Positions 17,004 to 28,494 of a stretch of 64,000 bases of DNA are shown here, piece by piece; positions within the stretch are counted from its first letter, which is position 1, and each line of letters begins with the position of its first letter. The position numbers and the translations under genes are program-made. A model generated the notes under the pieces. The model had not been told where the DNA came from, made no database searches, and saw only the letters and a list, made by a program, of their open reading frames with translations. Source of the stretch: Teichococcus aerophilus (GTDB lineage: Bacteria; Pseudomonadota; Alphaproteobacteria; Acetobacterales; Acetobacteraceae); contig NZ_JACTVA010000003.1 in assembly GCF_014490485.1 (NCBI RefSeq), positions 62,001-126,000 of the forward strand, in the 5' to 3' direction.

Positions 17004-18032
17004 ATGGCGCTTGCTCTCTCGATCCTCGACCAATCCACCATCGTCTCCGGTCGGGGTGCCGACGATGCCGTGCGGGAAACCCTCGCTCTGGCGAAGCTGG
17101 CCGACGAGCTGGGCTATGCCCGCTACTGGCTGGCCGAGCACCATAACAGCGCCAGCCATGCCGGCGCGGCGCCCGAGATCCTGATCTCCGCCATCGCCGC
17201 GACCACCCAGCGCATCCGCGTCGGCTCCGCCGGGGTGATGCTGCCGCACTACTCGGCGCTGAAGGTGGCCGAGCAGTTCCGCATGCTGGAGGCGATCGCG
17301 CCCGGCCGCATCGACCTTGGCGTCGGCCGTGCCCCGGGCAGCGATGGGCGCACCGCCTATGCGCTCAACCCGCAGGCGGCGCAGCAGACGGTGGACGACT
17401 TCCCGCAGCAGGTGCAGGACCTGCTGGGCTGGCTGGGCGAAGGCCTGCCGGTCGACCACCCCTTCCGCAGCATCCGCGCCCAGCCGGAAACGCCGACGGC
17501 GCCGCAGACCTGGATGCTCGGCAGTTCGGATTACGGCGCGCGTCTCGCCGCCGTATTGGGGCTGCCCTACTGCTTCGCCTATTTCATCACCGATGGCCGT
17601 GGCGCCGCCGAGGCACTGGCCCGCTACCGCCACGAATTCCAGCCCCGCCCCGGCCGTGCTACCGCGCCCTATGCCGCCATCGGCGTCTTCGCCCTCTGCG
17701 CCGAGACGGAGGCCGAGGCCCGACGCCTCTACCGCTCCCGCGAGTTGTGGCGGCTGTCGCGTGACCGCGGCATCTTCCCGCCGCTGCCCAGCGTGGCGGA
17801 AGCCGAGGCCTACCCCTATACGGAGGCCGAGCAGGCGCATCTGGACCGTATCCGCGCCCGCGCCATCATCGGCACGCCGGAACAGGTGCGGGACCGCGTC
17901 TCCGCCCTGGCCGAGGAATTGCATGTGCAGGAGGTGGCGGTGCTCTCCCCCCTGCATGATGCGGAGGCCCGGCGCCGTTCCGTGCGCCTGCTGGCGGAGG
18001 CCTTCGGCCTGCCGCGAGCGGCGCTTTCTTGA
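17004..18032 (+). CDS. LLM class flavin-dependent oxidoreductase
   Basis: A 342-residue luciferase-like monooxygenase family protein. The N-terminal part is typical of the YhbW/MsnO8-like group: ALSILDQSTIVSG, then YARYWLAEHHNSASHAGAAPEILI, IRVGSAGVMLPHYSALKVAEQFRMLEA and RIDLGVGRAPGSD. These proteins use reduced FMN; natural substrates are mostly unknown. It is a stand-alone gene between epmB and lepB. No flavin reductase gene is nearby. Confidence 0.88.
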   Translation: MALALSILDQSTIVSGRGADDAVRETLALAKLADELGYARYWLAEHHNSASHAGAAPEILISAIAATTQRIRVGSAGVMLPHYSALKVAEQFRMLEAIAPGRIDLGVGRAPGSDGRTAYALNPQAAQQTVDDFPQQVQDLLGWLGEGLPVDHPFRSIRAQPETPTAPQTWMLGSSDYGARLAAVLGLPYCFAYFITDGRGAAEALARYRHEFQPRPGRATAPYAAIGVFALCAETEAEARRLYRSRELWRLSRDRGIFPPLPSVAEAEAYPYTEAEQAHLDRIRARAIIGTPEQVRDRVSALAEELHVQEVAVLSPLHDAEARRRSVRLLAEAFGLPRAALS

Positions 18033-18122
18033 CATTCGTGCCCACCGCGCGCTCTACCCCGCACCATCGTGGTCGCGGCGGCTGGCGCGGCAGACCGAAG
18101 CGGGGCCTCGAGCTTTCCTGAT

Positions 18123-18881
18123 ATGACGACGAAAAAGAAACCGGGCGGCTGGCTCGAGAGCATCAAGACCGTTGTCTATGCCGGGCTGATCGCCATCGGC
18201 ATCCGCACCGTGGCGTTCGAGCCGTTCAACATCCCCTCCGGCAGCATGATCCCGACGCTGCTGGTGGGCGACTATCTGTTCGTCTCCAAATACGCCTACG
18301 GCTATTCCCGCCACTCCCTGCCCTTCAGCCCGGACCTCTTCCAGGGTCGCGTCTTCGGTTCCCTGCCGGCGCGCGGCGACGTGGCGGTGTTCAAGTTCCC
18401 GCGGGACAACACGACGGACTACATCAAGCGCATCGTCGGCCTGCCGGGGGACCGCATCCAGGTCCGCGCCGGCCGGCTGTACGTGAACCGGGTGGAGGTG
18501 CCGCGTGAGTCACTCGGCCTCTACACGGTCGAGGGCGATGGGCCGCGCATCACCGTGCGCCGCTACCGCGAGGCGCTGCCGGCTTCACCCAACGGCCAGC
18601 CGGCGCCGCACGAGATCCTGGAAGCCACGGATGACGGGCCCTACGATAACACCGTCGAGTTCCTGGTGCCGGAGGGTCATGTCTTCGCCATGGGCGATAA
18701 CCGCGACAACAGCCTGGACAGCCGCGACATGATCAGCGGCGTCGGCTTCGTGCCGCTGGAGAATCTGGTGGGCCGGGCGGAGATGATCTTCTTCTCCGTC
18801 GATGGCAGCGCGGCATGGTGGGAAGTCTGGGGTTGGCCCTTCGCCATCCGCTGGAACCGCCTGTTCTCGGCCGTCCGGTGA
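18123..18881 (+). CDS. lepB: Signal peptidase I
   Basis: LepB removes signal peptides from exported proteins at the periplasmic face of the inner membrane. With the ATG at 18123 (MTTKKK) it has 252 residues. One membrane helix (about 15-30) precedes the catalytic PSGSM motif with Ser41. Lys102 in DYIKRIVGLPGD is the general base. The C-terminal GDNRDNSLDSR block is the third conserved box. The stop overlaps the GTG start of rnc by GTGA, so the lepB-rnc-era series is translated in order. An in-frame start at 18069 would only add weak upstream residues. Confidence 0.95.
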   Translation: MTTKKKPGGWLESIKTVVYAGLIAIGIRTVAFEPFNIPSGSMIPTLLVGDYLFVSKYAYGYSRHSLPFSPDLFQGRVFGSLPARGDVAVFKFPRDNTTDYIKRIVGLPGDRIQVRAGRLYVNRVEVPRESLGLYTVEGDGPRITVRRYREALPASPNGQPAPHEILEATDDGPYDNTVEFLVPEGHVFAMGDNRDNSLDSRDMISGVGFVPLENLVGRAEMIFFSVDGSAAWWEVWGWPFAIRWNRLFSAVR

Positions 18882-19543
18882 GCAACGGCTTCAAGGCCCG
18901 CATTGGCCATAGCTTCGCCAATGCCGCACTGCTCGACCAGGCGATGACGCATCGTTCCGCCGCCGATCCGCGGCGGGACATGCTCGATTCCAACGAGCGG
19001 CTGGAATTCCTGGGCGACCGGGTGCTGGCGCTGGTGATGGCCGAGTGGCTGTCCGACCGCTTCCCGCAGGAGCGGGAGGGCGCGCTGGGCAAGCGGCTGG
19101 CCGTGCTGGTCGCCGCCGAGACGCTGGCCAAGGTGGGCGAGGCCATCGGCCTGCCCGCCGCGCTGCGCATCCCCCCCGCCGAGGGCCGCACCGGCCTGCG
19201 CGGCCGCATGACCGTGGTGGCGGACGCGACCGAGGCACTGATCGGCGCCCTCTACCTTGATGGTGGGCTGCAGGTCGCGCGCGACTTCATTCGGCGCGAA
19301 TGGACCGGCCACATGGACGCCGACCCGACGCCGCCGATGTCGGCGAAGAGCCGGCTGCAGGAATATACGCTCGGCCGCGGGGAAGGATTGCCGGAATACC
19401 GGCTGGTCTCGACCACCGGCCCATCCCATATGCCTGTCTTCGTGGTCGCCGTGCGCGCCGCTGGGCGGGAAGCCGAGGGCAGCGGCGAATCCAAGCGCGC
19501 CGCCGAGCAGGCCGCCGCCGAAGCCTGGCTGGCCGCAATCTGA
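18878..19543 (+). CDS. rnc: Ribonuclease III
   Basis: RNase III cuts double-stranded RNA in rRNA precursors and structured mRNAs. The 221-residue protein has the catalytic signature NERLEFLGD at residues 39-47, the second acidic block DATEALIGALYLDGG, and a C-terminal double-strand RNA binding domain (SAKSRLQEYTLGRGEGLPEYRL ... GESKRAAEQAAAEAWL). It starts at a GTG that overlaps the lepB stop and is followed 9 bp later by era. This order is widely conserved. Confidence 0.95.
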   Translation: MSNGFKARIGHSFANAALLDQAMTHRSAADPRRDMLDSNERLEFLGDRVLALVMAEWLSDRFPQEREGALGKRLAVLVAAETLAKVGEAIGLPAALRIPPAEGRTGLRGRMTVVADATEALIGALYLDGGLQVARDFIRREWTGHMDADPTPPMSAKSRLQEYTLGRGEGLPEYRLVSTTGPSHMPVFVVAVRAAGREAEGSGESKRAAEQAAAEAWLAAI

Positions 19544-19552
19544 AGAACTGAG

Positions 19553-20515
19553 ATGACCGACAACACCGCCGCGCCCACCGACCAGACGCCCGAGGACCCG
19601 ACCCCCCGGGAGCAGAACCCGGCCCAGACCCGTTGCGGCATCATCGCCGTGGTGGGTGCACCGAATGCCGGCAAGTCCACGCTGGTCAACCGGCTGGCGG
19701 GCAGCAAGGTCTCCATCGTCTCCCCCAAGCCGCAGACCACGCGTTTCCGCATTCGTGCGGTAGTGATGCATGGCGCGGCGCAGCTGGTGCTGGCGGATAC
19801 GCCGGGCATCTTCGCCCCGCGCCGGCGGCTGGACCGCGCCATGGTGGCCGCCGCCTGGGAAAGCACCCAGGATGCCGACCTGGCGCTGCTGGTGGTCGAT
19901 GCCCGCGCCGGGCTGACCGAGGCGCTGCAATCCATCCTCTCCGTGCTCAAGCGCTCCCGCGCCCCGGTCTGGCTGGTGCTGAACAAGACCGACCTGATCG
20001 ATACCAAGAAGCTGCTGCCGCTGACCGCCGCGCTGAACGAGCAGATCCAGTTCGCCGAGACGCTGATGGTCAGCGCCGAGAGCGGCGATGGCGTGGACCG
20101 CATGCTGGACATGATGGCCGCTCACGTCCCCTACGGCCCTTACCTGTTCCCGGAGGACGACCTCTCCGACCTGCCGGACCGCATGCTGGCGGCGGAGATC
20201 GTGCGCGAGCAGATCCTGCGCCAGACCCACCAGGAAGTGCCCCACCACACCACGGTGGAGACCGAGCAGTGGGAGGAACGGCGCGACGGCTCCGTCCGCA
20301 TCGACTGCACCATCTATGTCGGCCGGGCGACGCAGAAGGCCATCCTGATCGGCGATGGCGGCGCCAAGGTGAAGGATATCGGCCGCCGTGCCCGCACGGA
20401 GCTGGAGAAGCTGCTGGAGCGCCGCGTCCACCTGTTCCTGAACGTCAAGGAACGCCAGGGCTGGGATGAGGAACGCGCCCGCATCCGCGCCATCGGCCTG
20501 GAAGACATCGGCTAG
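19553..20515 (+). CDS. era: GTPase Era
   Basis: Era is a GTPase that binds 16S rRNA and helps assemble the 30S subunit. The 320-residue protein has G1 GAPNAGKS (residues 35-42), the DTPGIF G3 motif, the NKTD G4 motif, and a C-terminal KH domain with GDGGAKVKDIGRRAR. About 25 extra N-terminal residues rich in Thr, Pro and Asp precede the G domain; these may be real or an upstream start choice. recO follows after 69 bp. Confidence 0.95.
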   Translation: MTDNTAAPTDQTPEDPTPREQNPAQTRCGIIAVVGAPNAGKSTLVNRLAGSKVSIVSPKPQTTRFRIRAVVMHGAAQLVLADTPGIFAPRRRLDRAMVAAAWESTQDADLALLVVDARAGLTEALQSILSVLKRSRAPVWLVLNKTDLIDTKKLLPLTAALNEQIQFAETLMVSAESGDGVDRMLDMMAAHVPYGPYLFPEDDLSDLPDRMLAAEIVREQILRQTHQEVPHHTTVETEQWEERRDGSVRIDCTIYVGRATQKAILIGDGGAKVKDIGRRARTELEKLLERRVHLFLNVKERQGWDEERARIRAIGLEDIG

Positions 20516-20584
20516 AAGGTGCCGCCGAAGCCGATGCGCGCAGCCGGGCCTGACCGCCCCGCCGAGAGCTGACCCGGCACCGCG

Positions 20585-21340
20585 ATGGAATGGGAAGCTC
20601 CCGCCATCGTGCTGGAGGCCCGCCCTTACGGCGAGGGCGGTGCCATCGTCTCCGTCCTCACCGAGCAGTACGGGCGCTATGCAGGGCTGGTCCGCGGCGG
20701 CGCCTCTCGCGCGCAATCCGGGCTGTGGCAGTCGGGCAACCTGGTCGAGGTCCGCTGGGTCAGCCGGCTGGCCGACCAGCTGGGCCACATGACGGGCGAG
20801 ATGGTGCATCCCACCGCCGCCCTGGCGATGGATGAGCCGCTCTCCCTCGCCCTGCTGCAGTCCGCCTGCGCCCTGGCCGCCGATGCGTTGCCGGAGCGGG
20901 AGGCACAGCCCCGCGTCTTCTCCGCCATGCTGCCGTTGCTGGCGCATCTGCAACAGGGCGGCGCGGAGCTGATGGCGGATTACGTCCGCTGGGAACTCGT
21001 GCTGCTGGAGGCGCTGGGCTACGGCCTCGGCCTCAGCCGTTGCGCGGCCACCGGCACGACGGAGGCGCTGGACTGGGTGTCTCCACGCACCGGCCGCGCC
21101 GTCAGTGCCGAGGCCGCCCTGCCCTATGCCGGCCGGTTGCTGCCGCTGCCCAGCTTCCTGCACGGTGCCCAGGCGGAGCGCGACCCGGCGGCCTGGCTGC
21201 AGGGTCTGCGCCTGACCGGCCACTTTCTCACCCGCGATGCCTTCGGCGCCCGGCACCGCGCGGTTCCACCGGCGCGGGAACGGCTGGAACACCGCGTCGC
21301 GGACCTCGCCGCCGGTACGGACACGAACGTCGCGGGCTGA
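20585..21340 (+). CDS. recO: DNA repair protein RecO
   Basis: RecO loads RecA onto SSB-coated single-stranded DNA with RecR. The 251-residue protein begins with the OB-fold segment WEAPAIVLEARPYGEGGAIVSVLTEQYGRYAGLVRGG, and the alpha-helical C-terminal half includes RWELVLLEALGYGLGLSRCA. Several alphaproteobacterial RecO proteins lack a full zinc knuckle; only one Cys is seen in that spot here. The gene closes the lepB-rnc-era-recO series. Confidence 0.93.
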   Translation: MEWEAPAIVLEARPYGEGGAIVSVLTEQYGRYAGLVRGGASRAQSGLWQSGNLVEVRWVSRLADQLGHMTGEMVHPTAALAMDEPLSLALLQSACALAADALPEREAQPRVFSAMLPLLAHLQQGGAELMADYVRWELVLLEALGYGLGLSRCAATGTTEALDWVSPRTGRAVSAEAALPYAGRLLPLPSFLHGAQAERDPAAWLQGLRLTGHFLTRDAFGARHRAVPPARERLEHRVADLAAGTDTNVAG

Positions 21341-21379
21341 AGCGGCCGAACCTCTCGCACGGAATGACGTTGGATCGTG

Positions 21380-21940
21380 ATGCCCGATACCGCCCCCACG
21401 CTGCCCATGACACCGTTGGAGCCGGTCCTGCCGGATGTGTTGCGCCCTGGCCTGCGGCTGGTCTTCTGCGGCAGCGCGCCCGGCGCCGTCTCCGCCGCAC
21501 GGGGCGCCTATTACGCCCATCCCGGCAACCGCTTCTGGCGCGTGCTGCACGAGGCCGGGCTGACGCCGCGTCGCTTGGCCCCGGCCGAGTATAAGCTGCT
21601 GCTCGATTGGGGCATTGGGCTGACCGACATGGCGAAGCACGCCAGCGGCAATGACGACCAGTTGCCGCCGGATGCCTACGACCCTGCCGGCTTTGCCGCC
21701 CGCATCCTGGCGGTACGGCCGGATGCGGTGGCCTTCACGGCCAAGGCGCCTGCCGCCGCCTTCCTGGGGCGGCGGACCAGCGCCATCGGCTACGGCCGCG
21801 TGGAAGGAGCGCCGGACTTCCCGCCAGTCTGGGTGATGCCCTCCACCTCCGGCCAGGCCAGCCGCTTCTGGGACGACCGGCCGTGGCACGCACTCGGTGC
21901 GTGGTTCCGCGCGGAGCCGCCGGGCGGCGGCGGCACGTGA
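21380..21940 (+). CDS. mug: Mismatch-specific uracil/thymine-DNA glycosylase (Mug family)
   Basis: A 186-residue member of the uracil-DNA glycosylase superfamily, closest to Mug. The active-site block reads CGSAPGAVSAARGAYYAHPGNRFW, in which the motif SAPG replaces the usual GINPG. The second motif is MPSTSGQASRFW, a variant of NPSGLNR. The Asn expected at motif I is absent, which is usual within Mug relatives that remove uracil or ethenocytosine opposite G. A GTG directly before the ATG could also start translation. The gene is convergent with the transporter behind it. Confidence 0.85.
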   Translation: MPDTAPTLPMTPLEPVLPDVLRPGLRLVFCGSAPGAVSAARGAYYAHPGNRFWRVLHEAGLTPRRLAPAEYKLLLDWGIGLTDMAKHASGNDDQLPPDAYDPAGFAARILAVRPDAVAFTAKAPAAAFLGRRTSAIGYGRVEGAPDFPPVWVMPSTSGQASRFWDDRPWHALGAWFRAEPPGGGGT

Positions 21941-21945
21941 TACGG

Positions 21946-21979
21946 GCGCGGCCAGGGGTTGAGTGCCCCTGGGCCGCGC
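21946..21979. terminator. Hairpin between convergent mug and NRAMP-like genes
   Basis: GCGCGGCC-AGGGG pairs with CCCCTGGGCCGCGC across a seven-base loop, with one bulge. There is no clear T tract on either side; it probably serves both convergent genes. Confidence 0.5.
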
Positions 21980-21985
21980 GCCGCG

Positions 21986-23404
21986 TCAGATGAGCTTGAA
22001 GGCGCTCAGCCCGGTGTAGATGCCCAGCAGGATGATGGCGATGCTGCTGACCACCAGCAGGGCGTTGAAGGCCTTGCTGCCGTATAGGCGCGGGTCCGTC
22101 TCATGCTTCCGCAGGTGCCAGACGGCCACGACCACCGCCAGCAGGAAGATGCCGGTGGCCACGCCGCCGATCTGCACCATCACCACTGGCGAGCGGACGA
22201 ACATGTAGGCCAGCCCCCACACCACCGGCAGGCCGATCGTGAAGTAGCGAATCCAGCGCAGCCGGTCCGCCGTGTCGTGCCAGTTCAGCACGCCCATCTC
22301 GGCCAGCAGGTTGACATACATGCGGGACCAGCTGGGGATGGCCGCCCATAGGGTGGAGCCCAGCACCACCACGGCGCCCACCAGGAAGACCAGGCCGGCC
22401 CACTCGCCCAGCGTGTCCGTGTACATGCGGGACAGGGCGGTGATCATCTCATTGCCCTGCGGAACCACGCCCTGCGGGTGCAGTACCGCGGCGCCCATGA
22501 TGAAGAAGGCAATGGTGCCGAAGGTGTAGATGACCCAGGAGAGGAAGGCGTCCTTGTACATGACGCTGATCCAGCCCTTGGCGCGGCGCTGCCAGGCCTC
22601 GCTACCGTCATTCGGGCCGACATGGCGGGCGTAGCCCTTCTCGATGCACCAGTAGGTGTAGAAGGTCAGCTCGTCCGCGCCGACGCCGGTGATGCCGAAC
22701 ATCGCGATGGCGGCGCCGATGGCGCCTGCCGGAATGGCGAAGGCCAAGCCACCGGCGATGTCATCCATCGAATAGGCGAAGGGGGTGAAGGGCAGGCCCA
22801 GGGCGATGCCGATGGTGATGAAGGAGAAGACCACCACCAGGATGCCGGCGCCACGCTCGATCCGGCTGTAATTGTTGCTGTAGAGCAGCGCGATGCTGCC
22901 GCAGACGGTGATGGCGGTCCAGATGCCGAGCGAGATGCCGCTGAGCGGCGCGCCGCCGATGGGCAGCAGGATGCTCATGGCCAGGGCTACGCCGCCCACC
23001 ACGCCGCCCATCTGCAGCACTTTGGACAGTGCCATGAGGGCCCAGAGCAGGTTGATCCAGCTCAGCCGCCCGATATGCGGCCCGACCTTGTTGTACCCTG
23101 TCAGTGCCGGCTGGCCGGTAGAGATGCACCAGCGGGCCAGTTCCACCTGTACGGCGACCTTCACGAAGGTGCTGAAGATCACCATCCACAGCAGCGCGAA
23201 GCCCACCGTGGCGCCAAGCGTGGTGGTGACGATCAACTCACCCGAGCCGACGATGGACGCACTGAGAATCAGCCCCGGGCCGAGATGCTTGAGGGAATGC
23301 GCCCACCCGACGGGCGGTTCCATGATGCCGTCTTTGGTGAGGCGATAGGGGTCGTCCGTCTGCGCAGCATCGCGATGCGCGAGGACCTCGGCATTGGCAC
23401 TCAT
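21986..23404 (-). CDS. NRAMP-family-like membrane transporter lacking canonical metal motifs
   Basis: A 472-residue polytopic protein with about eleven hydrophobic segments and overall NRAMP similarity. In classic NRAMP proteins (Mn, Fe, proton symport) TM1 carries DPGN and TM6 carries MPH. Here the TM1 region is GPGLILSASIVGSGELI (residues 42-58) and the TM6 region is GITGVGADELTFYTYW (237-252), so the usual Asp, Asn and Met ligands are missing. This is typical of a poorly studied NRAMP-like branch whose substrate is not settled. It stands alone, transcribed away from the DUF3597 genes. Inner-membrane location is clear; metal transport is not. Confidence 0.8.
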   Translation of the reverse strand: MSANAEVLAHRDAAQTDDPYRLTKDGIMEPPVGWAHSLKHLGPGLILSASIVGSGELIVTTTLGATVGFALLWMVIFSTFVKVAVQVELARWCISTGQPALTGYNKVGPHIGRLSWINLLWALMALSKVLQMGGVVGGVALAMSILLPIGGAPLSGISLGIWTAITVCGSIALLYSNNYSRIERGAGILVVVFSFITIGIALGLPFTPFAYSMDDIAGGLAFAIPAGAIGAAIAMFGITGVGADELTFYTYWCIEKGYARHVGPNDGSEAWQRRAKGWISVMYKDAFLSWVIYTFGTIAFFIMGAAVLHPQGVVPQGNEMITALSRMYTDTLGEWAGLVFLVGAVVVLGSTLWAAIPSWSRMYVNLLAEMGVLNWHDTADRLRWIRYFTIGLPVVWGLAYMFVRSPVVMVQIGGVATGIFLLAVVVAVWHLRKHETDPRLYGSKAFNALLVVSSIAIILLGIYTGLSAFKLI

Positions 23405-23646
23405 TCTTGTTCACTCTCCCGGCTGCCGCTGTTTTTGTTGATCTTGGCGGCGGTTATCCGGGGACTATGCAGGCCGAGGCATGGAGCGTCACCCCGGCGG
23501 CGGCCGAACTTGCGGGTTTGTGAGCGGGTCGACGGCATCGGGCGCGGGCGAAGGCGCCGTGGAAAGCGGGCCTGTAACTCGCCTCACCCTGCCAGGGGTG
23601 TGTTCTCTCGATTCGGACGTGGGTTGTCCGCTGGCGACGCTACCGG
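23405..23646. other. Intergenic region without a recognised gene
   Basis: About 240 bp between the start of the NRAMP-like gene and the end of the first DUF3597 gene. I see no coding frame, RNA gene or strong hairpin. It should hold the minus-strand promoter of the transporter and the 3' end of the DUF3597 transcript. Confidence 0.4.
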
Positions 23647-23964
23647 TCAGTGGCGCGGGTCCAGCGGCGGCTGCACGCCGGCCCGTGCCAGCCGGGCCAT
23701 CACCTCCCGATGCAGCCAGGTGTTCATATGCAGCATGTCGTTGGGGTCGCCGCTGTAGCGAAGCTCCAGCGCCAAAGCGCGCCTGGTATCAGGACCGCTG
23801 TCGAGGTTCAGCAACTTCAGCAGATCCACGATGGACTGGCCCCAGTTCAGCTTCTCGATGATCGGCCGGTCCAACGCGGCGCGGTGGAGGATGGCGATGA
23901 CATCGGCACCCGGCGGCAGGGGCGGATGGAAAACCTTGGACACGATGGCGCCGAAGATGCTCAT
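23647..23964 (-). CDS. DUF3597 domain protein (short copy)
   Basis: A 105-residue protein starting MSIFGAIVSKVFHPP. The C-terminal 60 residues (LNWGQSIVDLLKLLNLDSGPDTRRA ... MNTWLHREVMARLARAG) match the DUF3597 domain and align with the larger copy just upstream at 24111. It lacks the Ala/Pro-rich linker of that copy. The start at 23964 is chosen because both copies then begin MSIFG; an upstream in-frame start adds dissimilar residues. Function is unknown. No signal peptide is visible, so it is probably cytoplasmic. Confidence 0.75.
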   Translation of the reverse strand: MSIFGAIVSKVFHPPLPPGADVIAILHRAALDRPIIEKLNWGQSIVDLLKLLNLDSGPDTRRALALELRYSGDPNDMLHMNTWLHREVMARLARAGVQPPLDPRH

Positions 23965-24075
23965 CGCGGCGTGCTCCCTTTCCAGAGGCGTGTTCGCTTC
24001 CTGGTGGAATAACAGAGCCGTCCGCTCAAGGTTCGCGCGCACCGCCAGGACTTCGCCGCTGTCGGGGCGGTGACG

Positions 24076-24104
24076 CAGGCCGGCCGGGGGTCCCGGCCGG
24101 CCTG
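24076..24104 (-). terminator. Strong hairpin after the long DUF3597 gene
   Basis: A perfect 13-bp stem, CAGGCCGGCCGGG with CCCGGCCGGCCTG, and a three-base loop. It lies 7 bp past the stop of the gene at 24111. No T tract follows. Confidence 0.55.
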
Positions 24105-24110
24105 GGTCGG

Positions 24111-24629
24111 TCAGCCGCGCAGTTCGGGCGGCACCTGGCCGCCGTTCTCGGCCAGCTTGGTCATGACCTGCTTGTGCAGCCAGATATTCATGCTGGCGGA
24201 GTCATTGGTGTCGCCGGAGTAGTTCAGCTCCCGCGCCAACTCCTTCCGGGCCTCCAGGCTGCTGTCCAGGCCCAGCAGCTTCATCAGGTCGACGATGGAC
24301 TGCTTCCAGTTCAGCGACTGTCCGTTGGCCGACGCCATCTGCGTCAGCACGGCGTTCACGTCCACCGGCTGCTGCGGCGTGGCGCTGGCCCCTGGCGTGC
24401 CGGCGGCGGCAGCGGGGGTGCCGTACCCCGCGCCGGCCGGTGCGCCGCCCAGCACAGGCGGCGGCGCCATCGGCGCCGGTGCGGTGGTACCGGCGACGCT
24501 GGCGCCTGGCGTGCTGCCCCCGGTGGCGCTGGGCGAGCCGGCCGCCGCTTCCGCAGCCGCCGGCGCTTCCTGCGCCTTGGCCGACGGGTGGCCGAAGATC
24601 TTGCTCATGATCGAACCGAAGATGCTCAT
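24111..24629 (-). CDS. DUF3597 domain protein (long copy)
   Basis: A 172-residue protein with three parts: an N-terminal MSIFGSIMSKIFGHP, a central stretch of about 80 residues almost wholly Ala, Gly, Pro and Thr, and the C-terminal DUF3597 domain (DVNAVLTQMASANGQ, LNWKQSIVDLMKLLGLDSSLEAR, MNIWLHKQVMTKLAENGG). It is paralogous to the 105-residue gene immediately downstream, and both share the N-terminal motif. Role unknown; the flexible linker suggests the two ends bind different partners. A strong hairpin separates the two genes, so they may be separately terminated. Confidence 0.78.
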   Translation of the reverse strand: MSIFGSIMSKIFGHPSAKAQEAPAAAEAAAGSPSATGGSTPGASVAGTTAPAPMAPPPVLGGAPAGAGYGTPAAAAGTPGASATPQQPVDVNAVLTQMASANGQSLNWKQSIVDLMKLLGLDSSLEARKELARELNYSGDTNDSASMNIWLHKQVMTKLAENGGQVPPELRG

Positions 24630-24946
24630 CGCTCTCGCTCCCTGACAGGGGCAGATCTGGCCTTGGGCGGCCACGGTCATGCCCGACGCCGTTTTCCGGC
24701 GTCATGAAGGACGCCCCGGGCGGACTGCCCGGGGCGCTCGTGCTCTGGGTCCCGATTGACCCGCGGGACTGTAACGTGGCCGGATGGTGGGAGTTGACGC
24801 CGCCGGGCATGACCCCGGCATGCGTTTCTGTTATGTTCTCCCGCTCTGGCGCAAAGGACGGCAATGCGCTAGCCCCGCCAGGACAAACGCCGCCTGCCGG
24901 CGAACCCGACCCGCCTGCCGCATAGCGACCTACCAGGGAGCCCACC
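24630..24946. other. Divergent intergenic region with two tandem hairpins
   Basis: 317 bp between the DUF3597 gene (minus) and parC (plus). No coding frame is supported. Two perfect hairpins lie side by side: GACGCCG-TTTTC-CGGCGTC (24685-24703) and CGCCCCGGGC-GGACT-GCCCGGGGCG (24712-24736). They would be in the 5' leader of the minus-strand transcript if it starts beyond 24736. They are not placed like terminators of a known gene. Confidence 0.5.
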
Positions 24947-27184
24947 ATGCCCGCCGATGACATGACAATCCTGCCGCAGGACGGCGAGGTCCCGACCCAT
25001 TTCTCCGCCGCCCTGTCGGAGCGGTACCTGGCCTACGCCATGTCCACCATCACCGCGCGCTCCCTGCCCGATGTGCGGGATGGGCTGAAGCCGGTGCATC
25101 GGCGGCTGCTCTGGGCCATGCACCAGCTGCGGCTGGACCCGAGCGGCGGCTTCAAGAAATGCGCCCGCATCGTCGGCGACGTGATGGGTAAGTACCACCC
25201 GCATGGCGATGCCTCGATCTACGAGGCCATGGTGCGCCTCGCCCAGGAATTCGCGGCGCGTTACACGCTGGTCGAGGGCCAGGGCAATTTCGGCAATATC
25301 GACGGCGATAACGCCGCGGCCATGCGCTACACCGAGGCCCGGCTGACCGCCATCGCCCAGGCGATGCTGGAGGGGATCGAGGAGAACTCCGTCGATTTCC
25401 GCGCCACCTATGATGGGGAGGAGCAGGAGCCGATCGTCCTGCCCGCCGCCTTCCCCAACCTGCTGGCCAACGGCGCCGCCGGCATCGCCGTCGGCATGGC
25501 CACCTCCATCCCGCCCCACAATGCGGGCGAGCTGTGCGCGGCGGCGCTGGAGCTGATACGCAACCCCAATGCCGGGCTGGACGACCTGCTGCTGCACGTG
25601 CCGGGCCCGGACTTTCCCACTGGCGGCATCCTGGTCGAGCCGCCGGATGCGGTGCGGGAGGCCTATGCCACCGGCCGCGGCGGCTTCCGCATCCGCGCGC
25701 GGTGGGAGAAGGAGCAGCTGAAGAACGGCACCTGGCAAGTCGTCGTCACCGAGATCCCGTACCAGGTGCAGAAATCCGGCCTGATCGAGAAGATCGCGGC
25801 GCTGCTGGAAGAAAAGAAGCTCCCCCTGCTGGCCGATGTGCGGGATGAGAGCACGGACGTCGTCCGCATCGTGCTGGAGCCGAAGAACCGCACCATCGAC
25901 CCGGCCATGCTGATGGAGACGCTGTTCCGCGCCACGCCGCTGGAAAACCGCTTCTCGCTCAACATGAACGTGCTGGACGCCAACCGCACGCCGCAGGTGA
26001 TGGGGCTGAAGCAGGTGCTGCGGTCCTGGCTGGACCACCGGCACGTGGTGCTGGTGCGCCGCAGCCAGCACCGGCTCGACGCCATCGCCCGGCGGCTGGA
26101 GATCCTCGAAGGCTACCTGATCGTCTACCTCAACCTCGATGAGGTCATCCGCATCGTGCGGGAGGAAGACCATCCGAAGCCGGCGCTGATCGCCGCCTTC
26201 GACCTGACGGAGACCCAGGCGGAAGCCATCCTCAACATGCGCCTGCGCGCCCTGCGCAAGCTGGAGGAGATGGAGATCCGCAAGGAGCACAAGAAGCTCT
26301 CGGCCGAGCAGAAATCGCTGCAGGGCCTGCTGGCCAGCGAGACGAAGCGCTGGAACAAGATCGCCGACGAGATCGAGCTCACCCGCCAGAAATTCGGCGA
26401 GGAGACGGAGATCGGCCGCCGTCGCACCACGCTGGATGCCGCGCCCGCCGCCGTCATCATCGACGAGCGTGCCTTCCTGGAGAAGGAGCCGATCACCGTC
26501 ATCCTCTCCGAGAAAGGCTGGATCAGGGCGCTGAAGGGCCACATCTCGCCGGAGAACGAGCAGAAGTTCAAGGAAGGCGACAAGCTGCGCTTCTTCCTGC
26601 ACGCGCAGACGACGGACCGGCTCTGCCTGTTCGCCACCAACGGCAAGTGCTTCACCCTGAAGGCCGATGCGCTGCCGCGTGGCCGTGGCGACGGCCAGCC
26701 GGTGCGCCTGCTGGTGGACATGACCAATGAGGACGACGTCGTCACCCTGTTCGTGTGGGCGGAGGGCGTGAAGCACCTCGTCGCCTCGACCGACGGGCGC
26801 GGCTTCGTGGTCAAGAGCGAGGACCTGGTGGCCGAGAAGCGCACCGGCAAGCAGGTGCTGGTGGTGGACAGCCCGAACGAGGCCGCCTGCTGCATTCCCG
26901 CCGCGGGAGACAGCGTCGCCATCATCGGCGAGAATCGCAAGTTGCTGGTGTTCCCACTGGAACAGCTGCCGGAGATGGCGCGCGGCCGCGGTGTTGCCCT
27001 GCAAGGCTACCGTGACGGCGGCATGGCCGATGTGAAGGTGTTCAAGGCCAGCGCCGGCCTGACCTGGAAGCTGGGTGAGCGCGTCCGCATGGAATCCGAC
27101 CTGACCACCTGGCGCGGCAACCGCGCCGGCGCCGGCCGCCAGCCGCCGAATGGCTTCCCGAAGAACAACCGCTTCGGGGATTGA
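24947..27184 (+). CDS. parC: DNA topoisomerase IV subunit A
   Basis: ParC cuts and reseals DNA to separate daughter chromosomes. The 745-residue protein has the [32 protein letters not shown] start, the active Tyr128 in [11 protein letters not shown], and a beta-pinwheel C-terminal domain with weak repeats. The GyrA box is absent, which supports ParC over GyrA. In the quinolone region [13 protein letters not shown], Ala89 occupies the position of E. coli ParC Ser80. The gene is monocistronic and ends with a hairpin. parE is not in the window. Confidence 0.95.
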
Positions 27185-27192
27185 GCCGGCAA

Positions 27193-27216
27193 GGCCGGGA
27201 GGTCAGCCTCCCGGCC
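27193..27216. terminator. Hairpin between convergent parC and MFS genes
   Basis: A perfect 10-bp stem, GGCCGGGAGG with CCTCCCGGCC, and a TCAG loop, 8 bp after the parC stop. No T tract. Confidence 0.55.
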
Positions 27217-27228
27217 CTGCCGCCAGCG

Positions 27229-28494
27229 TTACGCCACTTCCTCATCCAGCCGCTGCAGGTTCCGCAGCTTCGGGAACAGGCGCATCCACAACCCGGCGAC
27301 GATCACCGTGCCCACGCCGCCCAGCACCACGGCCGCGACCGGGCCGATGCCGGCCGCCAGGGTGCCGCTGCGGAATTCGCCCAGCTGGTTGGAGGTGCCG
27401 ATGAACAGCATGTTCACCGCCGCCACCCGCCCCCGCATCTCGTCCGGCGTCCGCAACTGCACCAGGGTGGAGCGGACGACGACGCTGACGACATCCGCCC
27501 CACCCAGCACCGCCAGCGCCAGCGCTGAGAGCGGCAGCCAGGTGGAGAGGCCGAAGACGATGGTGGCCAGTCCGAACACCGCCACCGAGGCGAACATCAG
27601 CAACCCCGCGTGCCGCTTGATCGGCCGCCGCGCCAGCCAGATGGAGACGCCCAGCGCCCCCACCGCCGGGGCGCCGCGCAGCAGGCCGAGGCCCCACGGC
27701 CCGGCATGCAGGATATCCCGCGCATAGAGCGGCATCATCGCCGTGGCGCCGCCCAGCAGCACCGCGAACATGTCCAACGAGATGGCACCCATGATCTCGG
27801 GGCGGGAGCGGATGAAGCGCAGGCCGCCGAACACCGCTTCCAGCGTCACCTTGTCCCGTGCGCGGGGCGGCTGGCGCAGCCGGATCAGCAGCGCGGAGCA
27901 GGAGGCCAGGGCGAAGATGGCGGCGACGATGGAATAGACTACCCCTGCCCCCAGCCCATACAGCAACCCACCGGCCGAGGGACCGATGATGGTGACCGTC
28001 TGGAACACCGAGGAGGACAGCGCCGCGGCTCGGGAAAACAGCGCCGCCGGCACCAGCCCGGGCAGCAGCGCCTGCAAGCTCGGCCCCTCGAACGCCTTGG
28101 CGGTGCCGAACAGGGCGATGAGCACATAGATCATCGCCGGCGTGATGGCGTGGGTGAAGGATGCCACGGCGAAGGCCAGGGCGCAGAGCGCGGACAGGCC
28201 CTGGCAGATGGCGGCGATCAGCCGGCGGTCGAACCGGTCGACCACCTGGCCGGAGACGAAGACCAGCAGCACCATCGGCAGGAACTGCGCCAGCCCGACT
28301 AGGCCCAGCGCCAGCGGGCTGCTGGTCAGGTCGTAGATCTGCCAGCCGACGGCGACCGTCTGCATCTGGTAGGCCAGGGCCGAGAGGCTGCGGCTGCCAA
28401 GGAAGGCCGGAAGGTTGGGATGGCGGAGGAGGCGCTGCTGCTCCCCGGGGATCAGGGCCGCCGTGGTCGGGGCGGCGCCGGTACTCTGTTGCAT
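27229..28494 (-). CDS. MFS transporter, EntS-like (MFS_3)
   Basis: A 421-residue major facilitator protein with 10 to 12 hydrophobic segments. The N-terminal piece SRSLSALAYQMQTVAVGWQIYDLTSSPLALGLVGLAQFLP and the following GQVVDRFDRR loop are typical of the MFS_3/EntS group, which includes siderophore exporters and many uncharacterised efflux proteins. TPDEMRGRVAAVNMLFIGTSNQLGEF is the matching motif in the second half. No siderophore genes are near, so the substrate is open. The start at 28494 (MQQSTGA) is chosen; the longer frame begins with Arg/Pro-rich residues. Confidence 0.85.
   Translation of the reverse strand: MQQSTGAAPTTAALIPGEQQRLLRHPNLPAFLGSRSLSALAYQMQTVAVGWQIYDLTSSPLALGLVGLAQFLPMVLLVFVSGQVVDRFDRRLIAAICQGLSALCALAFAVASFTHAITPAMIYVLIALFGTAKAFEGPSLQALLPGLVPAALFSRAAALSSSVFQTVTIIGPSAGGLLYGLGAGVVYSIVAAIFALASCSALLIRLRQPPRARDKVTLEAVFGGLRFIRSRPEIMGAISLDMFAVLLGGATAMMPLYARDILHAGPWGLGLLRGAPAVGALGVSIWLARRPIKRHAGLLMFASVAVFGLATIVFGLSTWLPLSALALAVLGGADVVSVVVRSTLVQLRTPDEMRGRVAAVNMLFIGTSNQLGEFRSGTLAAGIGPVAAVVLGGVGTVIVAGLWMRLFPKLRNLQRLDEEVA

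What the first reader, a model, noticed from the sequence alone, without database searches (positions are those of the whole stretch)
21986..23404. NRAMP-like transporter without metal-ligand motifs
The TM1 DPGN and TM6 MPH motifs of classic NRAMP proteins are replaced by SASIVGSGE and GVGADELT. The fold appears kept, so the substrate or coupling may be different (another cation, or none).
Basis: partly seen in the sequence, partly recalled or inferred. Interest (0 to 1): 0.52.

Follow-up and report, generated by a model that had tools for sequence, protein, structure and literature searches.

The report
Nramp-related transporter without metal site
This is a membrane transporter with the body plan of bacterial manganese importers but without their metal-holding residues, and the genes beside its relatives suggest that it may carry small organic acids such as sugar acids instead of metal, which has not been tested.

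Summary
The 472-residue ORF is on the minus strand at 21986-23404. Pfam Nramp scores 55.8 bits, and the predicted fold matches Deinococcus Nramp (Z 31.7). The TM1 ligand motif DPGN aligns to GSGE without gaps; the TM6 Met is lost in either possible register. Proteins of this sort are already in print as "Nramp-related" or "orphan outgroup", most groups uncharacterised. This one belongs to a well-supported clade (GSGE in TM1, GADE in TM6) found in Roseomonas, Geminicoccus, Skermanella, Rubrobacter, Pseudonocardia, Streptomyces and Microscilla.

In Roseomonas it is a lone gene. Elsewhere in the clade it often sits with organic-acid catabolism: in 5 of 12 genomes the only galactarate/altronate dehydratase gene lies next to it, and 2 Streptomyces plasmids place it in an acid-sugar kinase cluster. 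Two Rubrobacter copies sit in a purine operon, and several loci show no link.

Best reading: an importer of small hydroxy-carboxylates built on the Nramp fold (about 0.45). The main rival is a divalent-cation carrier using the invariant acidic residues E56, D244 and E245. Function is untested.

The parts
21986..23404 (-). Nramp-related transporter gene, 472 aa (P0001)
   Evidence: conserved in 12 of 17 genomes of the genus
23237..23263 (-). TM1 break, residues 48-56 SASIVGSGE; GSGE takes the place of canonical DPGN
   Evidence: gapless alignments; G53, S54, G55 and E56 in 29 of 29 clade members
22664..22687 (-). TM6 break, residues 240-247 GVGADELT, in place of canonical ATVMPH
   Evidence: model breaks the helix at 242-243; register uncertain by two residues
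22991..23008 (-). TM3 GGVVGG (residues 133-138), where canonical proteins carry the Asp and Glu of the proton path
23159..23161 (-). Lys82 in TM2, invariant in the clade, Ala in most canonical proteins; candidate site for an anionic substrate (speculative)
   Evidence: 29 of 29 clade; K in 16 and Q in 27 of 50 other orphans; A in 17 of 19 canonical

Best explanation
The gene encodes a non-canonical, Nramp-related secondary transporter of the LeuT fold. It most likely imports small hydroxy-carboxylates (sugar acids of about 3-6 carbons, or related organic anions) by alternating access, and not Mn2+ or Fe2+. Shown: family, fold, loss of the metal ligands and of the TM3 proton-path residues, a distinct clade, and recurrent organic-acid gene neighbours in relatives. 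Inferred: the substrate class, that the substrate sits at the TM1/TM6 breaks, and that E56, D244 or E245 serve proton or Na+ coupling or shape the site. In Roseomonas the gene stands alone, so the partner enzymes would act from elsewhere in the genome.
For: Motifs and fold. Tree: GADE/GAGE clade 30 of 30 rows together (support 0.996), outside the Asp-bearing group of canonical and NRMT-like rows, 23 of 23 together (0.914). Neighbours: galactarate/altronate dehydratase within 4 kb in 5 of 17 non-Roseomonas clade loci, representing two lineages (Rubrobacter, Pseudonocardia). In those 5 of 12 genomes it is the only such gene in the genome. Also acid-sugar kinase, PdxA and LarC genes, a LarA-like gene and an IlvD/EDD dehydratase near the Pseudonocardia copies; acid-sugar kinase, PdxA, HpcH/HpaI aldolase and dehydrogenase beside 2 Streptomyces copies; mannonate dehydratase beside a 30% relative. 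A carboxylate transporter lies beside 3 of 17 (TctA/TctC; CitMHS/SLC13). Canonical MntH neighbours in Actinomycetota instead include DtxR-type repressor 3, cation efflux 2, FeoA 2 of 103 scanned. 11 of the 12 Roseomonas genomes that carry it also hold a canonical MntH, so it is not their sole Mn importer. Precedent: PxpT of C. glutamicum, an Nramp-related protein, is needed for growth on 5-oxoproline (PMC13274462, passages).
Against: No transport data. In the window's own genus there is no supporting neighbour: 11 of 12 loci sit in housekeeping synteny and 1 beside siderophore genes. Of the 17 non-Roseomonas loci, 2 sit in a purine operon, 2 beside arginine genes, 2 (Geminicoccus) beside nothing related and 1 beside GH43/SusD genes. 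The theme was chosen after looking at neighbours. Sugar-acid dehydratases are themselves metal-dependent (recalled), and one canonical MntH (G421:C1100:3500-4567) lies about 3.5 kb from such a gene. Two Nramp-related relatives are reported to raise cell Mn: MumT (PMC5050338) and YcsG/MntG (PMC10448178). E56/D244/E245 could bind a cation. The model is weakest exactly at the site (residues 52-55 under pLDDT 50).
Confidence: 0.45

Rival explanations
1. A divalent-cation transporter with a changed, hard-ligand site: E56 on TM1 with D244/E245 on TM6 bind Mg2+, Mn2+ or Ca2+, as an oxygen-rich site does in NRMT. The linked enzymes need the metal.
For: E56, D244, E245 in 29 of 29 clade members; EleNRMT carries Mg2+ with a changed site (PMC8806188, passages); MumT and YcsG reported as Mn importers (PMC5050338, PMC10448178, passages); a canonical MntH also lies near a GD_AH gene.
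Against: The TM1 Asp called universal in SLC11, including NRMT (PMC8806188), is Gly here. TM3 proton-path acids are lost. No Mg or Mn riboswitch: no Rfam match at E<=1 in window 18000-28000 or at gathering score in 7 relatives' loci. DtxR, FeoA and cation-efflux families, seen beside canonical MntH, are not among the 25 commonest families beside the clade (lower-ranked families not shown). Canonical MntH is present in 11 of the 12 genus members that carry the gene.
Confidence: 0.28
2. A symporter of metal-carboxylate complexes: the organic acid enters chelated to a divalent metal held by the acidic residues. This would reconcile the Mn phenotypes of MumT and YcsG with the organic-acid operons.
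For: Both kinds of evidence exist for relatives (PMC5050338, PMC10448178, PMC13274462, passages); an acidic site next to organic-acid genes; metal-citrate carriers exist in another family (recalled).
Against: No direct evidence; no assay of a clade member appeared in the papers found.
Confidence: 0.12
3. An importer of another organic solute, such as urate or another purine-related anion, with the sugar-acid link holding only for some members.
For: Two Rubrobacter copies lie between xanthine-dehydrogenase-type subunits, OHCU decarboxylase and uricase genes; the LeuT-fold cytosine carrier CodB appears at Z 21.7.
Against: Only 2 of 17 loci; sequences from Roseomonas to Pseudonocardia are 69-90% identical to the window's across contexts, so one substrate class is more likely.
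Confidence: 0.1

Closest known systems
Canonical Nramp/MntH (SLC11), e.g. Deinococcus radiodurans Nramp
   Same: Pfam family and LeuT fold; Z 31.7 over 383 residues
   Different: 15% identity; DPGN is GSGE, TM6 Met and MPH gone, TM3 acids gone; outside the Asp-bearing group of the tree
NRMT, Nramp-related magnesium transporter (EleNRMT)
   Same: Fold (Z 28.0); non-canonical site
   Different: NRMT keeps the TM1 Asp (DxxG-TxxA/T, PMC8806188); this clade does not, and the NRMT-like rows group with the canonical ones
YcsG/MntG (B. subtilis) and PxpT (C. glutamicum); Ray's 'G-motif 3' group holds MntG
   Same: Nramp-related, organic-acid operon (PMC13274462, PMC10448178); YcsG model matches at Z 27.0
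   Different: Probably a separate branch: rows with GAGD-type TM1 and GGVGGT TM6, which I take from recall to be YcsG-like, form their own clade of 11 (support 1.0)
MumT of Acinetobacter baumannii
   Same: Nramp-related, in a catabolic operon (urea), low identity to canonical Nramps (PMC5050338)
   Different: Sequence not fetched here; reported to raise cell Mn

Membership tests
Canonical SLC11/Nramp | TM1 Asp and Asn (DPGN) | tested here: not met
   GSGE in 29 of 29 clade members against DPGN in 19 of 19 canonical rows
Canonical SLC11/Nramp | TM6 A/CxxM, MPH | tested here: not met
   Met absent in either register
Canonical SLC11/Nramp | TM3 acidic proton-path residues | tested here: not met
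   canonical TDxAE aligns to QMGGV
Canonical SLC11/Nramp | LeuT fold closest to Nramp structures | tested here: met
Canonical SLC11/Nramp | Mn2+/Fe2+ transport | not testable with these tools
   needs an assay
NRMT (Mg2+) | DxxG on TM1 and TxxA/T on TM6 | tested here: not met
   G in place of D
NRMT (Mg2+) | groups with NRMT in a tree | tested here: not met
   the 4 NRMT-like rows were assigned by motif, EleNRMT itself was not in the tree
Nramp-related / orphan outgroup of PF01566 | over the PF01566 cut-off but without DPGN, MPH and proton-path residues | tested here: met
   (TM9 not examined); definition from PMC12873925 and PMC10606218 (passages)
Nramp-related / orphan outgroup of PF01566 | four invariant Gly in helix 3 of the orphan outgroup (PMC10606218, legend) | tested here: inconclusive
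   G133, G134, G137 and G138 in 29 of 29 clade members, not in all other orphan rows; the paper's figure was not seen, so the same columns cannot be claimed
Nramp-related / orphan outgroup of PF01566 | branches outside canonical Nramps | tested here: met
YcsG/PxpT group | clusters with YcsG/PxpT; pxpABC neighbours | not tested
   YcsG and PxpT sequences were not fetched; no oxoprolinase family is among the 25 commonest beside the clade

The most novel reading that the evidence does not exclude
A branch of the Nramp superfamily carries an organic acid in place of the metal: the GSGE/GADE clade imports sugar acids (or their metal chelates) through the Nramp fold. Metal specificity in SLC11 would then be a derived state within a family that includes organic-solute carriers.
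Probability: 0.4. Interest if true: 0.68.

Novelty: new member of a known kind. Interest (0 to 1): 0.42.

Why it matters
Such proteins are annotated "divalent metal transporter" (14 of 14 annotated relatives). If this clade moves organic acids, those annotations are wrong, and a missing uptake step of sugar-acid catabolism is supplied. Ray et al. 2026 state that the Nramp-related groups other than the NRMT-like and MntG-containing ones are uncharacterised, so a clear substrate prediction for one of them is directly testable and bears on how metal specificity arose.

Tried and rejected
Rejected: ligands shifted to adjacent positions (no Asp in TM1, no Met in the TM6 break). Rejected: membership in NRMT (Asp absent). 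Rejected: degenerate pseudogene (dN/dS 0.12-0.30). Rejected: a functional link to the window's neighbours (RNase III, Era, RecO, a uracil-DNA glycosylase family protein, two DUF3597 genes, topoisomerase IV A).

Led nowhere: viral contigs hold no relative; no RNA family in the window stretch or in 7 loci; paper searches for an Nramp linked to acid-sugar terms found none whose listing tests it (listings only). A coordinate-level comparison of the ligand site was not possible: the model's coordinates were not in the Python box, and the TM1 part of the site is under pLDDT 50.

Limits of counts: neighbours were called by my own GC3-bias script, which makes some spurious or overlong ORFs. Pfam tallies used 122 of 125 neighbours of the clade set (17 loci, Roseomonas left out), 127 of 152 of the other-orphan set (20 loci) and 103 of 117 of the canonical set (14 loci). 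Those dropped were mostly very short or very long ORFs. That tool shows only the 25 commonest families, so rarer ones are unseen. The 102-row tree left out two of 104 rows that aligned badly. In one search only 1 of 385 Alphaproteobacteria genomes (the window's own) matched, and 9 of 396 Actinomycetota, so the clade set is small and its loci are not independent.

Papers: passages by word search for PMC8806188, PMC4072509, PMC10606218, PMC10448178, PMC13274462 and PMC5050338; for PMC12873925 the abstract, sections 5 and 11 and passages. Others were seen as search listings only. Recalled, from no call: metal dependence of sugar-acid dehydratases, metal-citrate carriers, TerC as a Mn exporter, which rows are YcsG-like.

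Full report
What is there. The finding's ORF is real and lies on the minus strand, 23404 down to 21986, 472 residues. It scores 55.8 bits against Pfam Nramp (cut-off 29.8) and 92.4 bits against NCBIfam NF037982 (cut-off 50), but only 31.6 and 27.7 bits against the two canonical MntH/Nramp models, far under their cut-offs. The same genome holds a canonical MntH elsewhere (436 bits). The window's gene has no functional neighbours: RNase III, Era, RecO and a uracil-DNA glycosylase family protein on one side, two DUF3597 genes and topoisomerase IV subunit A on the other.

The site. Alignment with canonical proteins is gapless across TM1: DPGN becomes G53 S54 G55 E56. At that first position G is found in 29 of 29 clade members and 46 of 50 other orphan rows, and D in 19 of 19 canonical and 4 of 4 NRMT-like rows. 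At the Asn position E is found in 29 of 29, E or D in 43 of 50 other orphans, and N in 19 of 19 canonical. So the orphan signature is Gly for Asp and an acid for Asn. In TM6 the canonical Met falls on D244 or on G242 depending on register; the model breaks TM6 at 242-243. TM3 carries GGVVGG where canonical proteins carry the Asp and Glu of the proton path. TM9 was not examined separately.

Fold. An AlphaFold2 model from a shallow alignment of 13 rows reached pLDDT 67.5 and pTM 0.73, with TM1 broken at about 50-55 and TM6 at 242-243. Foldseek's best match is Deinococcus Nramp (E 2.3e-10). VIA-align gives Z 31.7 to Deinococcus Nramp, 28.0 to EleNRMT, 27.0 to the YcsG model, and 24.3 to the first carrier of an organic solute from another family, SLC7A10. 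Residues 52-55 are under pLDDT 50, so no geometry is claimed.

Clade and spread. In a 102-row FastTree tree the GADE/GAGE rows form one clade (30 of 30, 0.996), and the Asp-bearing canonical and NRMT-like rows another (23 of 23, 0.914). In an IQ-TREE tree of the clade, Roseomonas (12 rows), Geminicoccus and Skermanella group at 90/94 beside several Rubrobacter and Pseudonocardia branches, with the Streptomyces pair (99/99) outside them. The gene is in 12 of 17 genomes of the window's genus but in none of the other 41 relatives searched, in 1 of 385 Alphaproteobacteria sampled (the window's own), and in 9 of 396 Actinomycetota (8 at 72-75% identity and one at 28%). This patchiness points to horizontal transfer (inference). 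In 11 of 12 genus members it sits next to the topoisomerase IV A gene; in R. marmotae it is on a plasmid beside siderophore genes.

Neighbourhoods of relatives. Among 17 non-Roseomonas clade loci, 5 have a galactarate/altronate dehydratase (GD_AH) within 4 kb: three Rubrobacter (fused type of about 900 aa, with a GntR regulator, and with enolase-superfamily and dehydrogenase genes) and two Pseudonocardia (517-aa type in L028; IlvD/EDD dehydratase; LarC, a LarA-like gene, acid-sugar kinase and PdxA further upstream). The two dehydratase types differ, so the arrangements probably arose separately. In those five genomes it is the only GD_AH gene, while the other 7 of 12 genomes searched have 1-2 copies elsewhere. 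By simple proportion, about 10 kb in 3.1-9.4 Mb, chance adjacency is roughly 0.1-0.35% per genome; this is my arithmetic, on a family chosen after the fact. Two Streptomyces plasmids place the gene in a cluster of acid-sugar kinase, PdxA, aldo/keto reductase, HpcH/HpaI aldolase and dehydrogenase. A 30% relative in Halocatena is transcribed divergently from mannonate dehydratase. More distant orphans lie beside UxaA-type genes, lactate permease and a FAD/Fe-S dehydrogenase, and CoA-transferase and thiolase.

Against this, 2 of 17 are in a purine operon, 2 beside arginine genes, 2 Geminicoccus beside nothing related, 1 beside GH43/SusD genes, and 3 beside a tricarboxylate-type or CitMHS transporter. 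Deinococcus, Azospirillum, Haematobacter and a second Skermanella orphan show no clear link.

Control. Neighbours of 14 canonical MntH loci in Actinomycetota include DtxR-type repressors (3), cation efflux (2) and FeoA (2) of 103 scanned. Neighbours of 20 other-orphan loci include LUD (5), CCG (4), malate synthase (3), lactate racemase-like (2) and LutB (2) of 127, but also TerC (6). The TerC genes sit by one subfamily, the GLGE/AGPSGMQQ type: in all 5 places that I classified as that type (G418, G432, G519, G530, G540) a TerC gene lies within about 2.5 kb. TerC is recalled as a Mn exporter, so that subfamily may well be about metal.

Literature. Ray et al. 2026 (PMC12873925) define Nramp-related proteins as lacking the TM1 and TM6 motifs and the proton path, name a 'G-motif 3' group, and call all but the NRMT-like and MntG-containing groups uncharacterised. 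Shin et al. 2014 (PMC4072509) describe the outgroup as a possible link to carriers of non-metal substrates; one A. capsulatum member rescued Mn transport. MumT (PMC5050338) and YcsG (PMC10448178) are reported to raise cell Mn. PxpT (PMC13274462) is needed for growth on 5-oxoproline. The literature is therefore split between metal and organic acid for other groups, and I found nothing on this clade in the searches made.

Conclusion. The added result is a specific, testable prediction for an uncharacterised clade: an organic-acid, probably sugar-acid, importer. Confidence is moderate because the evidence is guilt by association from relatives, with several non-matching contexts, and because an acidic, possibly cation-binding site remains.

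Noticed in passing
L122, L125, L126, L127, L128: Another orphan Nramp subfamily (TM1 GLGE or GMGE, TM6 AGPSGMQQ) has one or two TerC genes within about 2.5 kb in 5 of 5 places classified; TerC is recalled as a Mn exporter, so this pair may form a metal system.
   Followed up: partly
L065, L066 (Rubrobacter): A 75%-identical copy of the window's protein sits inside a purine-degradation operon between xanthine-dehydrogenase-type subunits and OHCU decarboxylase plus uricase.
   Followed up: partly
L129:6554-8245: An orphan Nramp with TM1 GSGEWLLGP lies beside malate synthase (3 of 127 neighbours scanned are malate synthase), suggesting glyoxylate or glycolate metabolism.
   Followed up: no
window 23650-24042 and 24114-24680, minus strand: Two tandem DUF3597 genes of unknown function upstream of the transporter gene.
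   Followed up: no
window 21952-21972: Inverted repeat of 7 bases with a 7-base loop just downstream of the stop codon, without a T run; possible terminator, read from the printed sequence.
   Followed up: no
G014 (same genus): The only genus member of 16 searched that carries the Nramp-related gene but no canonical MntH match.
   Followed up: no
L027:5092-6060: Truncated second Nramp-like frame about 2 kb from the intact copy in Geminicoccus flavidas.
   Followed up: no
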